DNA from: Solirubrobacterales bacterium
GTDB taxonomy: Bacteria > Actinomycetota > Thermoleophilia > Solirubrobacterales > Solirubrobacteraceae
Direction of reading: 5' to 3'
NCBI GenBank assembly: GCA_019240655.1
Contig: JAFAXX010000032.1
Coordinates: 1 to 32,869, forward strand
DNA: 32,869 nucleotides
Both the position numbers and the translations under genes were made by a program. Positions 773 to 13,384 of the stretch are shown in pieces; the stretch's first letter is position 1; each line of letters starts with the position of its first letter. The notes under the pieces were generated by a model. The model saw nothing but the letters and a program-made list of their open reading frames with translations, searched no databases and was not told the DNA's origin.

Positions 773-815
773 GGGGTCGGTGCTTAGGCTACCGCGGCCC
801 GGCGCTACGACGCAC

Positions 816-2030
816 TCAGAGCTGCCAGCGGCCGCCCTGGAGCAGCACGTGCTCCCGGCCCTCGGCGTCGGTTCCGGCCACCGAAACCTCGTCACTTCCG
901 ATCATGAAGTCGATGTGCAGCTGGCTGCGGTTGATCCGGGCGGCGTCGCCGGCGGCGGTCACGGCGAAGTCGAGACCCTGGCCGAGGGCGATGTGGCTGG
1001 CCGCGTTCTCGTCGAGCAGCGTGTCGAAGAACACCGTGCCGAGGTGGCCGATCCGGCTCTCGCGGTCGACCAGGGCGACCTCACCGAGCCGGGCCGCCCC
1101 GTCGTCGCGGGCCGTGAGGTTGCGCAGCGTGTCGGCGCCGTGGTCGGCGTCGATCTCGACCGCGCGCCCGGCCTCGAAGCGAACGCGCAGCCCGGTGACC
1201 ATCGCGCCGGAGACGAACAGCGGCTTGGTCGCGCTGACGACTCCCTCGACCCGCGCGGGATCAGGAGTGGTGAACACCTCCTCGGTGGGCAGGTTCGGGG
1301 CATGGGCGATCCCGTCGACGGTTTCGAGCTGCCCGCACGTCCACCGGCTGCTCGGCAGCAGGCCGACGCGCAGGTCGGTGCCCGGGCCGGCGAATCGAAG
1401 CGCGTCGAGCCGCAGCCGCTCGAGCTTGGCGGCCGCCTCGGTCAGGTCGCCCAGGCGGCGCCGCCAGGCGCCGACCGGCTCCTTCTCGTCCAGGCGGCAG
1501 ACGTGCGCGACCTCGCTCCACAGCCGCGCCAGCGCCTCGGCCGGCTCGAGCTCCGGATGCACGAGCTCGGCCCACCCCGGGCTAGGGCACGGCGCCACTG
1601 TCCAGTTCACCTCGCGGGCATTGATGACCTCGATCGACTCGCGCACCGACGGGAGCATGTCCCGCCCCAGCCGTGACGTGTCGACCCCGTCCATCACGTG
1701 CGGCGCGACCGGCCCGGTGAGCGAGATCACCGCGCAGCGGTGCTCGCCGAGGGCGCGCACACGCTCGCCATACCAGGGCGGAACGAAGGCGAGCGTGTCC
1801 GCCGGCGCGTGCACGGCGCGCGAGCGCTTGAGGTGCATGTCGAACACCGACAGGTCGACGAACTTGGCGCCGTCCCGGTAGGCGGTCTCGGCGATCATCC
1901 GGGCCAGCGGCTCCTTCCCCGGCTCGGAGGCGAGCGACACGATCTGCCCCGGGCGGACGTTGGCGCCGAAACGGACGATCAGCTGGGCGAGCTCGCGGAT
2001 CGTCGACTCGTGGGTGAGGGCCCGGCTCAT
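816..2030 (-). CDS. M29-family metal-dependent aminopeptidase (AmpS/AmpT type)
   Basis: A 404-aa cytoplasmic aminopeptidase of the thermophilic M29 family, which removes N-terminal residues using a two-metal site. The family's metal-site segments are visible: NLPTEEVFTTP (glutamate ligand), LDENAASHIALGQG (glutamate and histidine) and the C-terminal SQLHIDFMIGS (His and Asp ligands). Length matches the usual 400-410 aa. The ATG at 2030 opens the expected N-terminal sequence, while in-frame sequence further upstream is low-complexity antisense of the neighbouring gene. TATGCT at 2042-2037 is a good -10 hexamer 6 nt from the ATG, with no Shine-Dalgarno, so the transcript is probably leaderless. 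It is divergent from the acyl-CoA ligase at 2128. Confidence 0.92.
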   Translation of the reverse strand: MSRALTHESTIRELAQLIVRFGANVRPGQIVSLASEPGKEPLARMIAETAYRDGAKFVDLSVFDMHLKRSRAVHAPADTLAFVPPWYGERVRALGEHRCAVISLTGPVAPHVMDGVDTSRLGRDMLPSVRESIEVINAREVNWTVAPCPSPGWAELVHPELEPAEALARLWSEVAHVCRLDEKEPVGAWRRRLGDLTEAAAKLERLRLDALRFAGPGTDLRVGLLPSSRWTCGQLETVDGIAHAPNLPTEEVFTTPDPARVEGVVSATKPLFVSGAMVTGLRVRFEAGRAVEIDADHGADTLRNLTARDDGAARLGEVALVDRESRIGHLGTVFFDTLLDENAASHIALGQGLDFAVTAAGDAARINRSQLHIDFMIGSDEVSVAGTDAEGREHVLLQGGRWQL

Positions 2031-2036
2031 AGGACG

Positions 2037-2042
2037 AGCATA
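2037..2042 (-). promoter_or_regulatory. -10 hexamer for a leaderless aminopeptidase transcript
   Basis: TATGCT on the minus strand ends 6 nt before the ATG at 2030, so transcription would begin at or next to the A of the start codon. No Shine-Dalgarno-like sequence is present in the gap and no convincing -35 was found. Leaderless mRNAs are common in Actinobacteria. The start-site claim is inference. Confidence 0.45.
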
Positions 2043-2117
2043 CGAGGCGGCGGCCGGCACGCGCTTGCACTGAGCGCCTTGGAGGCTCATGCTTTCGACA
2101 ATCGAGGCAGAGCACGA

Positions 2118-2189
2118 GGAGGGCGTGATGAGCGACACAGCTCGGGAGGGCGTGATCAGCGAGCGAGCATGCGAGGGCCTGATGATGGA
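2118..2189 (+). repeat. Triplicated 27-bp unit at the acyl-CoA ligase start
   Basis: Three imperfect copies of an 18-bp core (consensus GGAGGGCGTGATSAGCGA) begin at 2118, 2145 and 2172, exactly 27 bp apart. The third copy is the most diverged. The period is nine codons, so the reading frame is kept. Copies 1 and 2 carry a GGAGGG Shine-Dalgarno-like sequence and copy 3 a GAGGG, each just upstream of a possible start: ATG 2128; GTG at 2152, which is in frame; and ATG 2182/2185. The repeat thus multiplies translation-initiation signals. Confidence 0.8.
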
Positions 2190-3780
2190 CGACTTCCCGC
2201 TCTCGTTGAGAGCGGTGATCGAGCGTGCCGAGACCCTCAGCTTTCGCCGCCCGGTGGTGTTTCGCCGGCCCGATGGGTCGATCCACCGGACGACGCTCGG
2301 CGAGTGCGCGGCCCGCGCGCGCCGGCTGGCCGCCGGGTTGGCCGCCCTCGGCATCGGCGCCGGCGAGCGCGTCGCCACCATGCTCTGGAACCAACCTGAG
2401 CACCTCGAGGCCTACCTGGCCATCCCGCCGATGGGCGCGGTGATCCACACGCTGAACCCTCGTCTGCACACGGACGAGCTGAGCTTCATCGCGGCGGATG
2501 CCGCGGACCGCGCGATCATCGTCGACGAGACGCTGCTCGACGTGTTCGAGGCGCTCCGCGCCGAGTGGCAGTTCGAGCACGTGATCGTCGTTTCGCACTC
2601 CGGCTCGGCGCCGGATGCAGCGCTCGAGTATGAGTCGCTGACCTCGGCGCACGAGCCGATGGACTGGCCGGAGATCGGCGAGCGGCGGGCGGCCGCGATG
2701 TGCTACACGTCGGGCACGACGGGACGGCCCAAGGGCGTCCTGTACTCGCACCGCTCGGTCGTCCTGCATTCGCTCGTGACCGCGCTGCCGGACACCATGG
2801 GGGTGAGCACGCACGACGTGATCCTCCCGGTGGTACCGATGTTCCACGCGAACGCCTGGGGGCTGCCCTACGCCGCGGCGTTCGCGGGAGCGGCGCTCGT
2901 GCTGCCCGGCCCGCGGCTCGATGCCGAGAGCGTGCTCGACCTTCTGGCCGGCGAGCGGGTGACCGTCACCGCGGGCGTGCCGACGGTCTGGATGTCGGTG
3001 CTGCAGGCGATCGAGGAGCAGCCCGACCGCTGGGATCTGAGCGCGCTCAAGCGGATGATCGTCGGCGGCTCCGCGGTGCCCCGCAGCCTGCTCGAGGGCT
3101 TCGACCGCCACGGTCTGACGATCCTCCAGGCGTGGGGCATGACCGAGACCTCGCCGCTCGGGAGCATGTGCCGCGTGCCCCCAGAGCTCGATTCCGCCTC
3201 CACCGAGGACAGATACGACTTCCGCGCGCGCCAGGGGATCGCGGTGCCGTTCATCGAGCTGCGGGCCCGCGGCGACGACGGCGAGCTGATCCCCTGGAAC
3301 GACCAGGCGATGGGCGAGCTCGAGGTCCGGGGGCCGTGGGTGGCGGCCGGCTATCACGGCGGCGCCGGCCAGGAGAAGTTCACCGACGACGGCTGGTTCC
3401 AGACGGGCGACGTCGTCCGCATCGACGAGCACGGCTGCATCCGGATCACCGATCGGGCCAAGGACCTGGTCAAGTCCGGCGGCGAGTGGATCTCCTCCGT
3501 CGACCTCGAGAACCTGCTGATGGCCCACCCGGCCGTGGCCGAGGCCGCGGTGATCGCGATCCCGGATGAGCGGTGGGGAGAGCGGCCCCTGGCCGCGATC
3601 GTGCTCCGCGAGGGCCAGGAGGCGAGCCCCGACGATCTGCGCCAACACCTCACCGGGCAATTCGCCAAGTGGCAGATACCGGAGCGGATCGAGTTCATCG
3701 AGGAGATTCCGCGCACCGCCACGGGGAAGTTCAAGAAGACCGAGTTGCGAGAGCGCTTCGTCCAGGCGGTCGCGCGGTAG
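2128..3780 (+). CDS. Long-chain/medium-chain fatty-acyl-CoA ligase (ANL superfamily)
   Basis: Activates a carboxylic acid to its CoA thioester through an acyl-adenylate. The 550-aa protein has the whole ANL core: phosphate-binding loop YTSGTTGRPKG at about 193-203, AWGMTETSPLG, the GWFQTGDVV motif, the hinge region DRAKDLVKSGGEWISS and the C-terminal catalytic lysine loop PRTATGKFKK. Length and motifs fit fatty-acid CoA ligases; the exact chain length is not readable. The ATG at 2128 is chosen because GGAGG at 2118-2122 precedes it at good distance. The ATG at 2182/2185, immediately before DDFPLSL where family members usually begin, is the main alternative. The 27-bp triplication makes the N-terminus ambiguous. 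No beta-oxidation genes adjoin it. Confidence 0.93.
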   Translation: MSDTAREGVISERACEGLMMDDFPLSLRAVIERAETLSFRRPVVFRRPDGSIHRTTLGECAARARRLAAGLAALGIGAGERVATMLWNQPEHLEAYLAIPPMGAVIHTLNPRLHTDELSFIAADAADRAIIVDETLLDVFEALRAEWQFEHVIVVSHSGSAPDAALEYESLTSAHEPMDWPEIGERRAAAMCYTSGTTGRPKGVLYSHRSVVLHSLVTALPDTMGVSTHDVILPVVPMFHANAWGLPYAAAFAGAALVLPGPRLDAESVLDLLAGERVTVTAGVPTVWMSVLQAIEEQPDRWDLSALKRMIVGGSAVPRSLLEGFDRHGLTILQAWGMTETSPLGSMCRVPPELDSASTEDRYDFRARQGIAVPFIELRARGDDGELIPWNDQAMGELEVRGPWVAAGYHGGAGQEKFTDDGWFQTGDVVRIDEHGCIRITDRAKDLVKSGGEWISSVDLENLLMAHPAVAEAAVIAIPDERWGERPLAAIVLREGQEASPDDLRQHLTGQFAKWQIPERIEFIEEIPRTATGKFKKTELRERFVQAVAR

Positions 3781-7217: not shown

Positions 7218-7511
7218 ATGAACGCCGAGCGTACCCGGGCCTACCGGAGGGTGATGCACACCCTGAGCGAGGCGGGCCCGAGCAAGCTGCTCGACGAGGA
7301 GCAGGACCGCCTGCGCCATGCCGCCGACACGCTGCTCTTCAGCCAGCGGGTCCTCGACGACGATGACTCTCAAGCCGCGCTGGCCGACACCGAGCGGTTG
7401 TGTCGCTGGCTGGTCGACAGCGGACGCTGGCAGGAGGTCACCGCGATGCGGCTTGCCGATGACGTTGCGGAGTGCGGCCCGGAGCAGCCGGGCGAGCTAC
7501 GGGCGGCCTGA
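7218..7511 (+). CDS. Small hypothetical helical protein
   Basis: A 97-aa protein, charged and probably all-helical, with no cysteine pairs, signal peptide or membrane segment. The family was not recognised. ATG 7218 (MNAERTRAYRR) is preferred; ATG 7206 adds four residues (MIPA). Neither has a clear Shine-Dalgarno beyond the G-run at 7187-7199. The last 74 nt overlap the 3' end of the convergent MerR regulator gene, so antisense interference between the two messages is possible. Codon-position GC looks coding, and the LLDEEQDRLRHAADTLLFSQ stretch resembles a real amphipathic helix. Confidence 0.55.
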   Translation: MNAERTRAYRRVMHTLSEAGPSKLLDEEQDRLRHAADTLLFSQRVLDDDDSQAALADTERLCRWLVDSGRWQEVTAMRLADDVAECGPEQPGELRAA

Positions 7512-8409
7512 GGTCCACCGCGAGATCGCCTGAGGCGACTACGCCGGCGGCGGCAACCGCGTCCTCGCCGAGGTGCCGGAGGCCACAACGGCGGGCGACG
7601 TCCATCCCGCTCGCGGGGCCTACGAGTGCCACCGGCCAGCGGGTGCCGAGGCGGCGAATCGCGTCGACGTGCGGCGCCAGACGATCCGGCAGCTGAGTGG
7701 CGAGCACGATCAGGTCCGGGGCGACGCTTTCAGCAGTGGATCCCAGCGCGTCGAGCGGCGTGGCGGCGCCGAGGTAGGTGATCCTCCAGCCGAGGTGGTG
7801 CAGGGCGATGCCGAAGACGATCAGGTCCAGGGGGTGGCGCTCGACGGGCGGGCAGGCGATGAGAGCGCGCGGGCCGAGGCCGCGATCCCAGCCGCGGGCC
7901 AGCGCGAGCAAGCGCGAATGCAGGAAGTTCTCGGCGAAGTGTTCCCGGGCCAGCGGCGCGAGAGCGTGTCGCCGGCGCTCGCCGGCCTCCCGCACGAACG
8001 GCAGCAGCACCTCCCGGATGACCGCGGTGGCCGAGTAGTCGCTCAGCAGCTCGTGCAGGGCGCGCTCGGCCGAGGACTCCTCGAAGGCGGCGAAGGCGTC
8101 CTGGAGCTCGCGGACGACGCGCGCGGCCGCGTGCTCGGGGACGCCGGAGCCGCGACCCGCGCGTACGCTAAGACGGGCCGCCATCGAGAGCTCGGCGGCC
8201 TGGGCGGGAGGAATCTGCTCGCTGATGTAGCGCTTCATCAGCCTCACCCGCGCCTCGTCGAGCGCCGAGTACAGGCGGGTGTTGCCCGCCGTCCGGCGCG
8301 GCTTCAACAGCCCGTAGCGCCGTTCCCAGACCCGCAGCGTGTCGGTCGTCACGCCCACGCGGCGGCTGAGCTCGCTGATGCGCATCCAGGCCGAGGCAGG
8401 CGGCGGCAA
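7438..8409 (-). CDS. MerR-family regulator with B12-binding domain (CarH/LitR-like photoreceptor type)
   Basis: A 323-aa transcription regulator. Residues 10-76 are a MerR winged helix-turn-helix (RISELSRRVGVTTDTLRVWE, then RRYGLLKPRRTAGNTRLYS). Residues about 95-175 form the helical cap of cobalamin-binding regulators, and 180-295 a Rossmann-like B12 domain with ERHPLD (190-195), where H192 occupies the cobalt-ligand position of the ExHxxG motif. In the CarH signature W-x9-EH the EH pair is present (E156-H157), but the tryptophan is R146, and the motif glycine is D195. Family members repress light-inducible genes in the dark using adenosylcobalamin; whether this one still senses light is uncertain. 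TTG at 8409 is the likely start, with AGAAGG 4 nt upstream. A SigB-type promoter precedes it. Divergent from the PRC-barrel gene. Confidence 0.85.
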   Translation of the reverse strand: MPPPASAWMRISELSRRVGVTTDTLRVWERRYGLLKPRRTAGNTRLYSALDEARVRLMKRYISEQIPPAQAAELSMAARLSVRAGRGSGVPEHAAARVVRELQDAFAAFEESSAERALHELLSDYSATAVIREVLLPFVREAGERRRHALAPLAREHFAENFLHSRLLALARGWDRGLGPRALIACPPVERHPLDLIVFGIALHHLGWRITYLGAATPLDALGSTAESVAPDLIVLATQLPDRLAPHVDAIRRLGTRWPVALVGPASGMDVARRCGLRHLGEDAVAAAGVVASGDLAVDLRPPVARPAAPGRTPQRHRQAASR

Positions 8410-8623: not shown

Positions 8624-9514
8624 TTGAGTACCAGTGAGGCATACGCCTGGAAGGGCCGTGAACTCCATGGCCAGGAGGGCGAGAAGATCGGGACGATCAA
8701 GGAGATTTACGAGGACGCCCACACTGGCCGGCCGGAGTGGGCGCTCGTGACCAGCGGCCTGCTCGGGAAGCGCTCGCATTTCGTCCCGCTGGCCGGCGCG
8801 CAGCCGGCCGGTGACGACGTTCGCGTCAACGTGACCAAGGACCAGGTCACCTCCGCTCCGAGCATCGACGACGACGACGAGCTGTCGGAGGCGGAGGAGC
8901 GCCGGCTGTTCGAACACTACGGCGTGCCGTATACCGACGAGGGATCGGTGACCGCCCAGGGTGGCCCGCAGGGGGCCGGCGGGAGGACGGGTCAGGACGA
9001 GTTCGCGACCCGCGGCGCGCGAGGCGGGGCCGGCCGCGAAGCTGACCTGGCGCGCGAGGGCGAGTACGCCGACGAGGGCGAGTACGCCCGCGAGGGCGAG
9101 CTTGCCGGCCGCGGCGGCGAAGGTTACGACACGAGTGGTCCCACCACCGACGAGGCGATGACCCGCTCCGAGGAGGAGCTCCGCGTCGGCACGACACAGC
9201 GTGAGCGAGGCCGCGCGCGCCTGCGCAAGTACGTCGTGACCGAGGAGGTGCAGACCACCGTTCCGGTGCAGCGCGAGGAGGTCCGGATCGAGCGTGAGCC
9301 GATCACCGAGGAGACCGCGGGCCGCGCCATGGAGGGACCCGATATCTCCGAGGAGGAGCACGAGGTCATCCTCCACGAGGAGGAGCCCGTGGTCGAGAAG
9401 CGCGCCGTTCCCAAGGAGCGCGTGCGGCTCGCCAAGGACACCGTCACGGAGGAGCAGCAGGTCTCCGGTGAGGTCCGCAAGGAGCGGATCGAGCCCGAGG
9501 GCGAAGACATCTAG
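8624..9514 (+). CDS. PRC-barrel and DUF2382 (YsnF/AvaK) stress protein
   Basis: A 296-aa cytoplasmic protein. Residues 1-75 form a PRC-barrel domain (GQEGEKIGTIKEIYEDAHTG, then PEWALVTSGLLGKRSHFVPL). A charged linker of about 110 residues holds short repeats built on REGEY/DEGEY. The C-terminal part, about 190-296, is DUF2382, with its alternating acidic/basic strands (LRKYVVTEEVQTTVPVQREEV; VVEKRAVPKERVRLAKD). This pairing is typical of general-stress proteins; the molecular role is unknown. The TTG at 8624 is the start because GGAGGG (8614-8619) is well placed and the PRC domain begins at once; no in-frame ATG fits. It is controlled by the divergent region that also carries the MerR/B12 regulator promoter. 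Confidence 0.88.
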   Translation: MSTSEAYAWKGRELHGQEGEKIGTIKEIYEDAHTGRPEWALVTSGLLGKRSHFVPLAGAQPAGDDVRVNVTKDQVTSAPSIDDDDELSEAEERRLFEHYGVPYTDEGSVTAQGGPQGAGGRTGQDEFATRGARGGAGREADLAREGEYADEGEYAREGELAGRGGEGYDTSGPTTDEAMTRSEEELRVGTTQRERGRARLRKYVVTEEVQTTVPVQREEVRIEREPITEETAGRAMEGPDISEEEHEVILHEEEPVVEKRAVPKERVRLAKDTVTEEQQVSGEVRKERIEPEGEDI

Positions 9515-9622: not shown

Positions 9623-11089
9623 CTATTCGACCGCGAGCACGACGACCGTGCCGTCGTCCTGCAGCGGCTCGCGCCAGCAGTCGGTAACCGCCTGCTGGAT
9701 GGCCATCGCCGTCGATGCTGCGGTCCGGCTCTCGGCCTGCTCGACCGCCTCGCGGATCCCGTCGGCGCCGAAGTGGTTTCCGTCTTCCATGTGGCGTGCG
9801 GTGATCCCGTTGGTGACCACGATCAGCCGCTCGCCGGAGCGGAGCCGCCGCCGCGAGGGCGAGAACGAGCGGTCTGCTCCGGCCGCACCCAGCGGCTCGT
9901 GCATGGGACCCTCCAGCTCCTCGAAATCGCCATCGGAGCTGACCAGGTAGGCGGCCGGGGCGCCGCAATTGGCCCACGTGAGCGTCGCGGTGGCGGCTCG
10001 CCAGCGCGCGACCCAGGCGGTCACGAAGAAGGCCGCGTTGTCGAGCCGGCGCACCGTCTCGTCGATGCTCTCGAGTGCCGAGATGAGGTCCTCCCCGCGG
10101 CGACGCGCCGCGCGCAGCGCGCCCAGCGCCGCGGCGCCCAAGCCGGCGGCCGTCGGACCGCTGCCGGCCGCGTCCGCCACGGCGAGCCAGGCGCCGTCGC
10201 GATTCTCGACGAAGTCGAACCAGTCGCCGCCCACCTCGTATGCGGGCAGCAGTGCCCCCGCAAGCTGGACCCCGGCCATTCGCGCGACCCGAGGAGGAAA
10301 CAGGTTCTGCTGGATCTCGGCCGCGGCGGTCGTGGGCTTGCGCCGCCGGGTCGCCTCGATGAAGTCGGTGTATTCGTTCGCCAGCTCGAGCGCCGCGGCC
10401 CCCTGCTTGGCGATGTCGGCGAGCGGAGACCGAGGAACGCCCATGCAAAGCAGCAACCCGGTGACGCGGCCCCGCAGCCACAGCGGCTCGGCGACGCACC
10501 CGGGCAGCTTTTCCTGGAGGCGCTTGTAGAACGTCGGCAGCCCCTCGGGAACGATCTCCGGGCCGAGCGCCGGCGGCGCGTCGAGCCGGCCGGGAAACTC
10601 CTCCGAGCCGGCCAGGCGGAGGAGGTGCGAGCCGTCGATGTCGACCACGTACAGCGCCACCGCGACTCCGCCGGCGCGGCGCGCCTCGGCCACGAGCTGG
10701 TCGGCGACCAGATGCGGCGGCACCTCGTCGAGGATTCTGGTGACCTCAAGGGACAGCGGCGCCTGGCGCCCCAGATGGCCCGGGCTGCGGTATGGAAGCG
10801 TGGCGACCTCGCCGGCCGGCTCGCGGCCGCGCGTCGAGTCCTCCGGCCGCCCCTCGAGGCCGTCGAGCGCCTGCTCGAGTGCTCGCCGGGTGGGAAAGTG
10901 CCGGTAGAGAGTGGAGCGTCCGACGCCGGCCGCAGCCGCGAGCTCGGACATCGTTACCCCGCGGTCCCCGCCCAGCGCGATCGCCGCCTCGAGGATCCGC
11001 TGGCGGCTGGCCAGGGCATCGGCGCGCGTGAACGGCGCGCCGGTCTCGACGGCGAACTCCAGGTCCGATGCTTTCGCTGGCTCAGTCAC
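9623..11089 (-). CDS. TetR-type HTH / GAF-like / SpoIIE-type PP2C phosphatase fusion
   Basis: A 488-aa protein with an unusual domain order. Residues 27-71 are a TetR-type helix-turn-helix (VTMSELAAAAGVGRSTLYRH, 45-64). Residues about 105-245 look like a GAF sensor, followed by a short helical linker with QQNLFPP (260-266), the usual lead-in to RsbU-like phosphatases. Residues 280-488 are the SpoIIE/RsbU PP2C domain: EVGGDWFD (285-292), VADAAGSG (303-311, D306) and the terminal QDDG (477-480). The TDG motif reads TNG, with N427 for the usual metal-site aspartate, so activity may be reduced. RsbU-type phosphatases dephosphorylate anti-anti-sigma factors; here a DNA-binding head is attached directly. 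The start is GTG 11089, the only start upstream of the HTH, with a poorly placed Shine-Dalgarno. Confidence 0.88.
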   Translation of the reverse strand: MTEPAKASDLEFAVETGAPFTRADALASRQRILEAAIALGGDRGVTMSELAAAAGVGRSTLYRHFPTRRALEQALDGLEGRPEDSTRGREPAGEVATLPYRSPGHLGRQAPLSLEVTRILDEVPPHLVADQLVAEARRAGGVAVALYVVDIDGSHLLRLAGSEEFPGRLDAPPALGPEIVPEGLPTFYKRLQEKLPGCVAEPLWLRGRVTGLLLCMGVPRSPLADIAKQGAAALELANEYTDFIEATRRRKPTTAAAEIQQNLFPPRVARMAGVQLAGALLPAYEVGGDWFDFVENRDGAWLAVADAAGSGPTAAGLGAAALGALRAARRRGEDLISALESIDETVRRLDNAAFFVTAWVARWRAATATLTWANCGAPAAYLVSSDGDFEELEGPMHEPLGAAGADRSFSPSRRRLRSGERLIVVTNGITARHMEDGNHFGADGIREAVEQAESRTAASTAMAIQQAVTDCWREPLQDDGTVVVLAVE

Positions 11090-11287
11090 CCTTCACGTGT
11101 AGCCGTCCTTGCCGGACGGACGCCCGAGCGGCGACACCGTGCCGGGCGATCTCACCCATCGTACGCAGTCCGCGCCGACGGTGTCCCGTGCGACGTCCCG
11201 GATGTCCCGGATTGGGGTCGCGACTGCATCGTGGAGTGCGGAGCGGGGTATCTCCCAGGTGTCCACTCAACCTAGGAGGGAGCAAGC

Positions 11288-11644
11288 ATGCAGATCCCGA
11301 AGGATCAGATCGTCAGCCTGCTGCAGAGTCGCGGCGCTGGCGATCAGGCGGCTCAGGCGGCTGCCCAGCTGCCCGACCAAGTCGACCACGAGCAGCACGG
11401 CGCTTTGCTCCAGCAGCTCGGCGTCGACCCTCAGGAGCTCGTGGGGGGCGCGGGCGGCCAGCAGGGCGGTGCCGGTCAGCAGTACGGCGGGGGAGGTCAG
11501 CAGCAGTACGGCGACCAGCAGCAGTACGGCGATCAGCAGCAGCAGTACGGCGGCGGGGGCGAGCAGCAGTACGGGGATCAGCAGCAGCAGTCCGGCGGCG
11601 GCGGCGAGCAGCAGTACGGCGGCGGACAGGGCGACCAGTACTGA
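11288..11644 (+). CDS. Small conserved-type protein with Gln/Gly/Tyr-rich prion-like tail
   Basis: A 118-aa protein in two parts. Residues 1-52 (IPKDQIVSLLQSRG, then LPDQVDHEQHGALLQQLGVDPQEL) resemble a short helical module seen in small actinobacterial proteins. Residues 53-118 consist almost only of Gln, Gly, Tyr, Asp and Glu, in repeats of the form QQYG(D/G), with seven tyrosines. Such tails behave as prion-like or condensate-forming segments in other proteins. The Shine-Dalgarno AGGAGGG at about 11274-11280 is excellent, so it is probably highly translated. GGGTAT at 11246-11251 could be a SigB-type -10, but no matching -35 was found. Function unknown. Confidence 0.75.
   Translation: MQIPKDQIVSLLQSRGAGDQAAQAAAQLPDQVDHEQHGALLQQLGVDPQELVGGAGGQQGGAGQQYGGGGQQQYGDQQQYGDQQQQYGGGGEQQYGDQQQQSGGGGEQQYGGGQGDQY
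11476..11643 (+). repeat. Short-period CAG/TACGGC repeat tract
   Basis: Irregular tandem units of the form CAGCAGTACGGC, with one or two extra CAG or GGC codons, fill this stretch, which encodes the QQYG-type tail. Almost every glutamine is CAG, as expected of slippage-driven expansion. Length variation between strains would be likely. Confidence 0.8.
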
Positions 11645-12328: not shown

Positions 12329-13384
12329 ATGCTCGACAAGTTCGACGAGTTCCAGCAGTCACACCGGGCGCTGGCGCTGCCGCTGGCGGTGATCAGGAAG
12401 TTCAGCGACGACCAGGCGGGCAATCTCGCCGCGATCATCGCCTACTACGCGTTCTTCTCGCTGTTCCCGCTGCTGCTGCTGTTCACCACCGTGCTCGGGT
12501 TCGTCCTCCAGGGCAACCCGTCGGCACGGGAGAAGATCGTCCATTCCGCGCTGGGTCAGTTCCCGATCGTCGGCAACCAGCTTCAGGCTCATTCGCTCAG
12601 CGGCAGCGGGCTCGCGCTGGCGGTCGGAATCGTCGGCACTCTGTGGGCCGGGCTCGGGGTGACGGTCGCGGCCGAGAACGCCTTCAACCAGATCTACGCC
12701 GTCCCGCGCCGCGAGCGGCCGAACTTCGTCCACTCCCGTCTGCGCGGTTTCGGAATCCTGGCGGCGCTGGGGGTGCTGCAGGTCATCTCCAGCGCGGCCT
12801 CGGGCGCGGTCAGCGGCGGCGTCGGGGGCTTGGCCGCGACGATCGCGGGCATCGCGGTCTCGCTCGCGCTGAACCTGGTCCTGTTCTTCACCATGTTCCG
12901 CCTGCTGACCGACGACTCGGTCCCGACCAGCGAGCTCTGGCCCGGGATCATCTGCGCCACGGTGCTGTGGGAGATCCTCCAATCGGGGGGCGGTTTCTAC
13001 ATCAACCACGTTGTCAAGAACGCGTCGAACACCTACGGGACCTTCGCCACCGTTATCGGGCTGATCACGTGGCTGCACCTGGGCGCGCAAGCGGTGATCT
13101 ACTCGGTCGAGGTCAACACGGTGGTCAGCCTGAAGCTGTGGCCGCGCAGCTTGTTCGGGCCGAAGCGAGAAGAGGACAAGCGGACGCTTACGCGGATCGC
13201 CAAGACCGAGGAGCGCTCGCAGCCGCAGCGGGTGCACGTGACTTTCGACGAAGGCGACGATCGTCCGGGCGCGGAAGCGGCCGGCGAGCGCCAGGAAGCG
13301 CGAGGCGACCGCGCCGGAGACGAAGCCGCCGGCCAGGAGCAGGTCAGCGGCCGCCGGGGGTCAGGCTCGACGCCGCCCTCGTAG
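12329..13384 (+). CDS. YihY/BrkB-family inner membrane protein
   Basis: A 351-aa polytopic protein of the YihY/virulence-factor BrkB family (once misnamed RNase BN). The conserved opening is visible: the cytoplasmic stretch before AAIIAYYAFFSLFPLLLLF, then about six membrane helices to residue 270, including the family's ITWLHLGAQAVIYSVEVN near the last helix. The remaining 80 residues are a charged, probably disordered tail ending near an Arg/Gly-rich stretch. Transport function is assumed for the family but the substrate is unknown. It begins 9 nt after the two-helix membrane protein, so the two are likely co-expressed. Confidence 0.9.
   Translation: MLDKFDEFQQSHRALALPLAVIRKFSDDQAGNLAAIIAYYAFFSLFPLLLLFTTVLGFVLQGNPSAREKIVHSALGQFPIVGNQLQAHSLSGSGLALAVGIVGTLWAGLGVTVAAENAFNQIYAVPRRERPNFVHSRLRGFGILAALGVLQVISSAASGAVSGGVGGLAATIAGIAVSLALNLVLFFTMFRLLTDDSVPTSELWPGIICATVLWEILQSGGGFYINHVVKNASNTYGTFATVIGLITWLHLGAQAVIYSVEVNTVVSLKLWPRSLFGPKREEDKRTLTRIAKTEERSQPQRVHVTFDEGDDRPGAEAAGERQEARGDRAGDEAAGQEQVSGRRGSGSTPPS

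What the first reader, a model, noticed from the sequence alone, without database searches (positions are those of the whole stretch)
9623..11089. DNA-binding TetR head fused to a GAF/SpoIIE-type phosphatase, with TDG changed to TNG
The frame joins a TetR helix-turn-helix (27-71), a GAF-like sensor and a PP2C phosphatase of the RsbU/SpoIIE class in one 488-aa protein. TetR heads normally precede a ligand-binding helical domain, and RsbU-type phosphatases normally feed partner-switching without touching DNA. A fusion could place the phosphatase at its own target promoters or let dephosphorylation state feed back on transcription. N427 replaces a metal-site Asp while D306 and the terminal DD remain, so catalysis may be weak, or the domain may be a binding module.
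Basis: partly seen in the sequence, partly recalled or inferred. Interest (0 to 1): 0.72.

Follow-up and report, generated by a model that had tools for sequence, protein, structure and literature searches.

The report
DNA-binding TetR-headed stress phosphatase family
A soil bacterium and many of its relatives carry a single protein that joins a DNA-reading head, a sensor and a stress-signalling phosphatase, and the promoters of these genes often carry a shared short DNA word that changes with the type of head, which suggests that the protein binds its own promoter.

Summary
The fusion is real: one 488-aa minus-strand frame (9623-11089) with TetR_N, a GAF-fold sensor and an RsbU/SpoIIE-type PPM domain. 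It is not an artefact: the same order spans 56 places in 43 of 399 same-class genomes (lower bound); 0 of 20 relatives fetched from other classes carry the head. N427 is unusual: 72 of 75 homologues, the window included, have Asp, 3 Asn. The window copy also lost H377; its HTH and GAF show no private changes. So the family looks catalytically intact and this copy is probably a weak or dead phosphatase. New here: GGGACA is the most enriched 6-mer upstream of the window's group (36 seen, 2 expected, 17 of 28 promoters), GAGACA upstream of a second group (19 seen, 0.7 expected, 12 of 24), with a shared flank. Eight relatives without the head show one such word in all. This supports a head that binds its own promoter, often shared with a divergent PRC/DUF2382 or membrane-protein gene. 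Binding, substrate and activity are untested. Ten literature searches gave no paper on such a fusion.

The parts
9623..11089 (-). TetR-GAF-PPM fusion gene, GTG start, 488 aa
10868..10996 (-). TetR_N helix-turn-helix (residues 32-74)
   Evidence: Pfam PF00440 E 4.8e-10; RSTLYRHF in 20 of 20 clade A sequences listed
10751..10852 (-). linker, residues 80-113, low model confidence (pLDDT under 50 for 80-124), taken as flexible
   Evidence: least conserved of the four regions compared
10343..10750 (-). GAF-fold sensor, residues 114-249
   Evidence: Foldseek to GAF domains; no Pfam GAF match in this protein
9626..10297 (-). PPM (RsbU/SpoIIE-type) domain, residues 265-488
   Evidence: Pfam PF07228 E 9.1e-30; Foldseek to SiaA, RsbX, SpoIIE, Rv1364c
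9809..9811 (-). N427 codon (AAC) in place of the Asp of TDG
   Evidence: 72 of 75 homologues D, 3 N, window included
9959..9961 (-). A377 codon in place of the His of the CGHP motif
   Evidence: 56 of 75 homologues H; private to the window among 16 orthologues
11182..11208 (-). candidate operator: GGGACA, GGGACG, GGGACA as direct repeats, 93-119 bp upstream of the start codon
   Evidence: the support is comparative and not significant in the window alone
11288..11644 (+). divergent small Q/G-rich gene that shares the intergenic region
   Evidence: no Pfam match
12329..13384 (+). BrkB-family membrane protein gene; a BrkB gene lies in the flanks of several relatives
8657..9514 (+). PRC-barrel/DUF2382 gene, tail to tail with the fusion here, head to head with it in several relatives (start chosen by me)

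Best explanation
This is a member of a family of DNA-binding, sensor-controlled PPM phosphatases seen here only in the class of the window (41 of 43 genomes in one order, Solirubrobacterales by the record names). The TetR-type head binds words of the form A(a)nY-G(G/A)GACA in front of its own gene, often in a region shared with a divergent gene, and so autoregulates (supported by sequence, binding not shown). The head hangs on a probably flexible linker instead of the usual TetR ligand domain, so the GAF domain is the likely signal receiver and the helix before the PPM domain the likely dimer contact, as in RsbU-type enzymes (inferred). In most members the PPM domain is probably active on STAS anti-anti-sigma proteins (inferred). 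In the window's copy two motif residues are lost, so it is probably a weak or dead phosphatase kept as a sensor or binding module on DNA (inferred).
For: Same architecture at 56 places in 43 of 399 same-class genomes (counted by me from its table as matches that start at residue 32 or before and reach 410 or beyond; one of the 56, in G157, has a stop inside). In the window's group GGGACA is the top 6-mer upstream: 36 seen, 1.98 expected, in 17 of 28 promoters; in group 1 it is GAGACA: 19 seen, 0.71 expected, in 12 of 24. Against dinucleotide shuffles clade A shows 32 against mean 3.98, largest of 300 is 10; against other intergenic DNA of the same loci 6.07 per kb against 0.40. Both groups show A at -4 (22 of 36; 14 of 19) and C/T at -1 (34 of 36; 19 of 19), and group 1 has palindromes such as CGAGACACGGTGTCTCG. 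Site type follows head group (36 and 8 against 4 and 19, Fisher 5.7e-7). Head-less relatives: 1 GGGACA and 0 GAGACA in eight 300-bp regions. Of 20 neighbours scanned, 6 are PRC/DUF2382 or PRC, 4 MS_channel_1st_1 and 3 Holin-X, all divergent and across groups. Possible partners in the genome: 6 STAS and 8 HATPase_c_2 matches over cut-off. Window-private changes at columns invariant in 15 orthologues: PPM 5, HTH 0, GAF 0.
Against: No binding or enzyme data. In the window itself GGGACA is not enriched (13 against 17.5 in shuffles) and the repeat cluster alone is not significant (29 of 100 shuffles reach it). Clade A sites show no fixed spacing or palindrome. 11 of 28 group 3 and 12 of 24 group 1 promoters lack their group's word, and group 2 (9 members) has no strong word. 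GAGACA is also somewhat raised in group 3 (8 against 0.76) and GGGACA in group 1 (4 against 1.26). Sequences are related and some upstream regions share stretches, so Fisher's p overstates. The inverted pair at the genome's sigma/STAS locus C191 is absent from 7 of 7 relatives examined. PPM identity of the window copy is within the range of the others (0.656; 0.646-0.718), so general decay is not shown.
Confidence: 0.62

Rival explanations
1. The upstream element belongs to another regulator that controls this gene neighbourhood; the TetR head binds elsewhere or not at all.
For: Sites in clade A are half-site-like with variable spacing; the divergent neighbours recur and could be the controlled genes; GGGTAT is also enriched in group 3 (10 seen, 0.36 expected).
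Against: The site variant follows the head group; eight head-less relatives show one site in all; sites occur beside different divergent neighbours (PRC in L016, L018, L044; MS channel in L043; Holin-X in L120; zinc ribbon in L035).
Confidence: 0.22
2. The window copy is an active phosphatase in spite of N427 and A377: Asn still holds the metal and the His is not essential.
For: All ten relatives with Glu at 377 and three of the four with Asp keep all five conserved Asp, so the His can be replaced; two other N427 members are otherwise intact at these positions (L022, L028); overall PPM identity is normal.
Against: PPM1A D239N is called catalytically inactive (PMC7072254, passages; motif equivalence recalled); two motif losses in one copy and 5 private changes in PPM against none in HTH and GAF.
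Confidence: 0.25
3. The TetR head has lost DNA binding and is only a dimer or protein-contact module.
For: The usual TetR C-terminal domain was not found and the linker has low model confidence.
Against: RSTLYRHF is kept in 20 of 20 clade A sequences, the window's HTH has no private changes; group-matched promoter words.
Confidence: 0.1
4. Assembly or frameshift artefact joining two genes.
For: The genome is fragmented (191 contigs).
Against: Full-length frames in many genomes, among them the named strain Conexibacter sp. CPCC 206217 (L047).
Confidence: 0.01

Closest known systems
RsbU/SpoIIE-type PPM phosphatases with GAF or PAS sensors (RsbU, RsbZ, OsaC, Rv1364c)
   Same: GAF then PPM, and the PPM fold; sensor-linker-PPM layouts of this kind are described in PMC12143880 (passages)
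   Different: TetR helix-turn-helix at the N terminus; D427N and H377A in this copy
TetR family regulators
   Same: TetR_N head over the Pfam cut-off; frequent divergent neighbour and upstream repeats, in group 1 also as palindromes
   Different: no TetR ligand/dimer domain found; the HTH is followed by a linker and GAF-PPM
TetR-PAS-GAF-PPM relatives (L023, L026, L054)
   Same: TetR_N, SpoIIE and the same GAF-PPM core
   Different: a longer stretch and a PAS domain between head and GAF-PPM (PAS over the cut-off in L023 and L026, below it in L054)
Head-less GAF-PPM relatives (L078, L083-L086) and a receiver-GGDEF-GAF-PPM protein (L079)
   Same: GAF-PPM core 38-43% identical
   Different: no TetR head; practically no GGGACA/GAGACA upstream of the head-less ones

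Membership tests
TetR family regulators | TetR_N helix-turn-helix | tested here: met
   PF00440 39.5 bits, cut-off 24
TetR family regulators | C-terminal helical ligand-binding/dimer domain after the HTH | tested here: not met
   no such Pfam match at E <= 1; NCBIfam TetR models match only the HTH part and far below cut-off; low-confidence linker, then a GAF fold
TetR family regulators | palindromic operator at own or divergent promoter | tested here: inconclusive
   group-specific repeats; palindromes seen in group 1, not in clade A
RsbU/SpoIIE-type PPM phosphatases | PPM/SpoIIE fold | tested here: met
   PF07228 104.5 bits; Foldseek
RsbU/SpoIIE-type PPM phosphatases | conserved metal-site aspartates, among them that of TDG | tested here: not met
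   D289, D306, D478, D479 present; 427 is N in this copy, D in 72 of 75 homologues
RsbU/SpoIIE-type PPM phosphatases | dephosphorylates a STAS anti-anti-sigma protein | not testable with these tools
   6 STAS matches over cut-off exist in the genome, none of them on the window's contig C139
GAF domains | GAF fold | tested here: met
   best Foldseek hits are GAF domains or GAF-containing proteins; model mean pLDDT 71.2, TM 0.54
GAF domains | Pfam GAF profile match | tested here: not met
   none at E <= 1 in the window protein; sub-threshold in L028

The most novel reading that the evidence does not exclude
A DNA-anchored partner switch: the GAF signal and the DNA-bound state of the TetR heads together set whether the PPM domains dimerise, so that occupancy of the protein's own promoter directly gates stress-sigma signalling, and in copies such as this one a dead PPM domain holds phospho-STAS proteins on the promoter as a co-regulator.
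Probability: 0.2. Interest if true: 0.85.

Novelty: new variant of a known kind. Interest (0 to 1): 0.62.

Why it matters
Partner-switching phosphatases are known to act through protein partners. A whole family that carries a conserved DNA-reading head, with a candidate operator that changes with the head, makes it directly testable whether such a phosphatase can report on, or be controlled by, its place on the chromosome. It also gives a defined DNA word to look for when mapping regulons in Solirubrobacterales, a little-studied soil group.

Tried and rejected
Regulon at sigma/STAS genes: the only GGGACA-to-TGTCCC pair within 30 bp in the genome lies between a sigma-like and a STAS gene on contig C191 (the STAS gene is confirmed by Pfam, the sigma gene is named by me from its sequence). 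The reversed-pattern control gives as many pairs. In the seven closest orthologous sigma loci (L142-L148) the pair is absent from 7 of 7; three carry no site, four a single one, in L143 within the sigma-STAS gap. I dropped the idea. Direct pairs in the genome: 10 against 6 for the reversed control, most of them inside frames. TGTCCC-to-GGGACA pairs: as many as in the control.

Sigma-B-like promoters: GGGTAT is enriched upstream of group 3 (10 against 0.36) but a GTTT or GGTT word before GGGTA is present in only a few cases. Helical phasing: the 10 same-direction distances fall at 9-12 and 20-22 bp (p 0.0006 against uniform); looked for after seeing the data, three of ten from the window, so only suggestive. 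Fixed spacing or palindrome in clade A: none clear. Sigma-70 promoter scan: 0 found. NCBIfam: only matches below cut-off.

Rows dropped or chosen: the broken second copy of G162 (L080) and the L077 plus-strand fragment were left out; one search kept 75 of 80 rows (those spanning residues 285-425); one search kept 62 of 63 sequences (one near-duplicate) and its one-member group (L082) is in no count; one search used 15 of the 18 loci (L049 partial, L050 broken, L051 partial). Of the relatives without a TetR head listed I count eight (L083-L086, L090, L097-L099) and leave out L024, L077 minus, L080 and L095 (uncertain or broken 5' ends), L079 (the stretch examined is coding) and L087 (frame broken by a stop); those left out show no GGGACA or GAGACA in the same stretch either; in a longer stretch L077 minus has two GAGACA. 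Start codons there are my guesses. The 20 neighbours scanned were picked by me out of 62 called; 7 of 20 were of other kinds or without a match over cut-off. One search scored three and four candidates per genome, so counts are lower bounds. One search examined 20 of the 65 matches from other classes (20 of the best 24).

Full report
The frame at 9623-11089 on the minus strand encodes 488 residues from a GTG. Pfam finds TetR_N at 32-74 (39.5 bits, cut-off 24) and SpoIIE at 298-487 (104.5 bits, cut-off 25) and no GAF. The full model, from an alignment of 16 sequences, has a mean pLDDT of 68.8 (pTM 0.50), is best in the PPM part and has low confidence at 80-124 and 236-265; its best solved matches are the PPM domains of SiaA, RsbX, SpoIIE and Rv1364c. 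A model of the middle part alone (mean pLDDT 71.2) matches a GAF domain first (3ci6_B, E 9.5e-5, TM 0.54, rmsd 5.9) and then mostly GAF domains and GAF-containing phytochromes.

It is a family, not an accident. Of 399 same-class genomes searched, 62 have a match at E <= 1e-20. Counting from that table, 56 places in 43 genomes, the window's own included, start at residue 32 or before and reach residue 410 or beyond; one of them has a stop inside. Two of the 43 genomes (G162, G122) are outside the order. Named records with relatives are MAGs titled Solirubrobacterales, Solirubrobacteraceae, Conexibacter and Gaiellaceae, and the strain Conexibacter sp. CPCC 206217. Within the genus 14 of 28 genomes, the window's own included, have some match at E <= 1e-40, the closest 73% identical. 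In 396 genomes of the phylum the only matches that reach the TetR region are the window's own and the two of G077 of the same family; the others start at residue 88 or later. Of 20 matches from other classes that I fetched (of 65; 20 of the best 24), 0 carry a TetR-type head by a profile built from the family, against 6 of 6 positive controls. Some relatives within the class show other heads on the same GAF-PPM core: a longer TetR part plus PAS, a receiver plus GGDEF, or none.

N427. Among 75 homologues, the window included, five acidic positions are nearly fixed: D289 in 74, D306 in 74, D427 in 72 (3 Asn), D478 in 73, D479 in 74. The other two Asn carriers, L022 (50% identical to the window) and L028 (44%), have near relatives with Asp, so the change probably arose more than once; I built no tree for this. 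The window copy also lacks H377 of the CGHP motif (56 of 75 have His). Among 16 orthologues the window has 5 private changes at PPM columns invariant in the other 15 (largest number in any other: 3) and none in the HTH or GAF; its overall PPM identity is ordinary. SpoIIE is said to place D628, D746 and D795 at the metals (PMC5468089, passages; PMC8080068, one passage); N427 aligns with the Asp of TDG in Rv1364c, which I take for the D746 position. PPM1A D239N, the same motif by my recall, is called catalytically inactive and binds one substrate less well (PMC7072254, passages). So a weak or dead phosphatase is likely for this copy but not shown, and it is not the state of the family.

A candidate operator. 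Comparing the 260 bp upstream of 17 orthologues (window included) with the rest of the same loci, GGGACA/TGTCCC ranks first of all 6-mers: 27 against 0.98, in 13 of 17. Four clade A loci not used for that search add 5 copies in 3 of 4; four group 1 loci not used to find GAGACA add 3 copies in 3 of 4; some of these upstream regions share short stretches with earlier ones. The excess stands against dinucleotide shuffles (32 against 3.98, largest of 300 is 10) and against other intergenic DNA of the loci (14 copies in 2307 bases against 10 in 25273, crude gene calls of mine). Grouping 62 TetR-headed proteins by identity gives three main groups: in group 3 (28, with the window) GGGACA leads, 36 against 1.98, in 17; in group 1 (24) GAGACA leads, 19 against 0.71, in 12; group 2 (9) has no strong word. 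Counts are of single arms, so a palindrome counts twice. The two groups share the flank, A at -4 and C/T at -1, and group 1 contains real palindromes (CGAGACACGGTGTCTCG in L028). Site type against group: 36 and 8 against 4 and 19, Fisher 5.7e-7; by promoter 16 and 3 against 2 and 11, with 9 and 11 undecided, 1.9e-4; both are inflated by kinship. Eight GAF-PPM relatives without the head have one GGGACA and no GAGACA in 300 bp before my guessed starts. The window carries GGGACA, GGGACG, GGGACA at 11182-11208; alone this would not be significant.

Neighbours. The gene next door is often divergent, and among 20 that I picked and scanned 13 are of three kinds: PRC or PRC/DUF2382 (L016, L018, L044 near the window's clade; L021, L110, L111 farther off), a mechanosensitive-channel TM-helix protein (L043; L060, L106, L114 farther off) and Holin-X (L036, L039, L120); BrkB lies near in many clade A loci and directly before the fusion in L037. 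In the window the divergent gene is a small Q/G-rich protein without a Pfam match, BrkB follows, and the PRC/DUF2382 gene lies tail to tail. That such genes belong to stress responses is my recall; two searches with DUF2382 gave one paper, seen only in the listing.

How it most likely works. Shown by sequence: the fusion, its conservation, and a promoter word that goes with the head and its group. Inferred: the head binds this word and autoregulates; since no TetR dimer domain is found and the linker looks flexible, binding to loosely spaced arms may be tolerated; the GAF domain takes the signal and the helix before the PPM domain passes it on by dimer contact, as described for RsbU and relatives (PMC12143880, passages). 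The genome has possible partners: 6 STAS and 8 HATPase_c_2 matches over cut-off (some of the latter may be histidine kinases) and 3 other SpoIIE-type matches. A link of the sites to the sigma/STAS locus on C191 was tested and not supported.

Literature. Ten searches of the held library listed no paper whose title or abstract start describes a TetR-SpoIIE fusion. Two candidates were checked by passages: the places shown for 'tetr' are parts of other words. Other listed papers, such as PMC3183031 and PMC12943098, were seen only in the listing. Databases of domain architectures were not available, so automatic annotation of such fusions may well exist.

Noticed in passing
L080 (G162 C14), also L050: A second copy of the fusion in one genome is broken into two frames, beside a stretch similar to the PRC/DUF2382 gene: a likely pseudogene.
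   Followed up: partly
L051 / L089 (G210 C239): A partial copy matching only the first part of the fusion (within residues 2-183, 58% identical), head to head with a PRC/DUF2382-like gene.
   Followed up: no
L079:775-3327: Receiver-GGDEF-GAF-PPM protein: the same GAF-PPM core joined to a diguanylate cyclase.
   Followed up: partly
L018 and L082: Two other relatives with altered acidic positions (D306E and D478A in L018, D289N in L082), so single losses recur in the family.
   Followed up: partly
window 7438-8409 minus: MerR-type regulator with a B12-binding_2 domain next to the PRC/DUF2382 gene; by recall this resembles B12-dependent light-responsive regulators.
   Followed up: no
L140 (G000 C191), 791-3467: Two sigma-like genes flank a STAS gene with three GGGACA sites in about 850 bp; the inverted pair is not found in seven relatives.
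   Followed up: yes
upstream regions of group 3 loci: GGGTAT, by recall the -10 word of sigma-B-type promoters, is enriched (10 against 0.36) without a clear -35 partner.
   Followed up: partly
window 11288-11644 plus: Small gene with a long Q/G/Y-rich repeat tail, divergent from the fusion.
   Followed up: no
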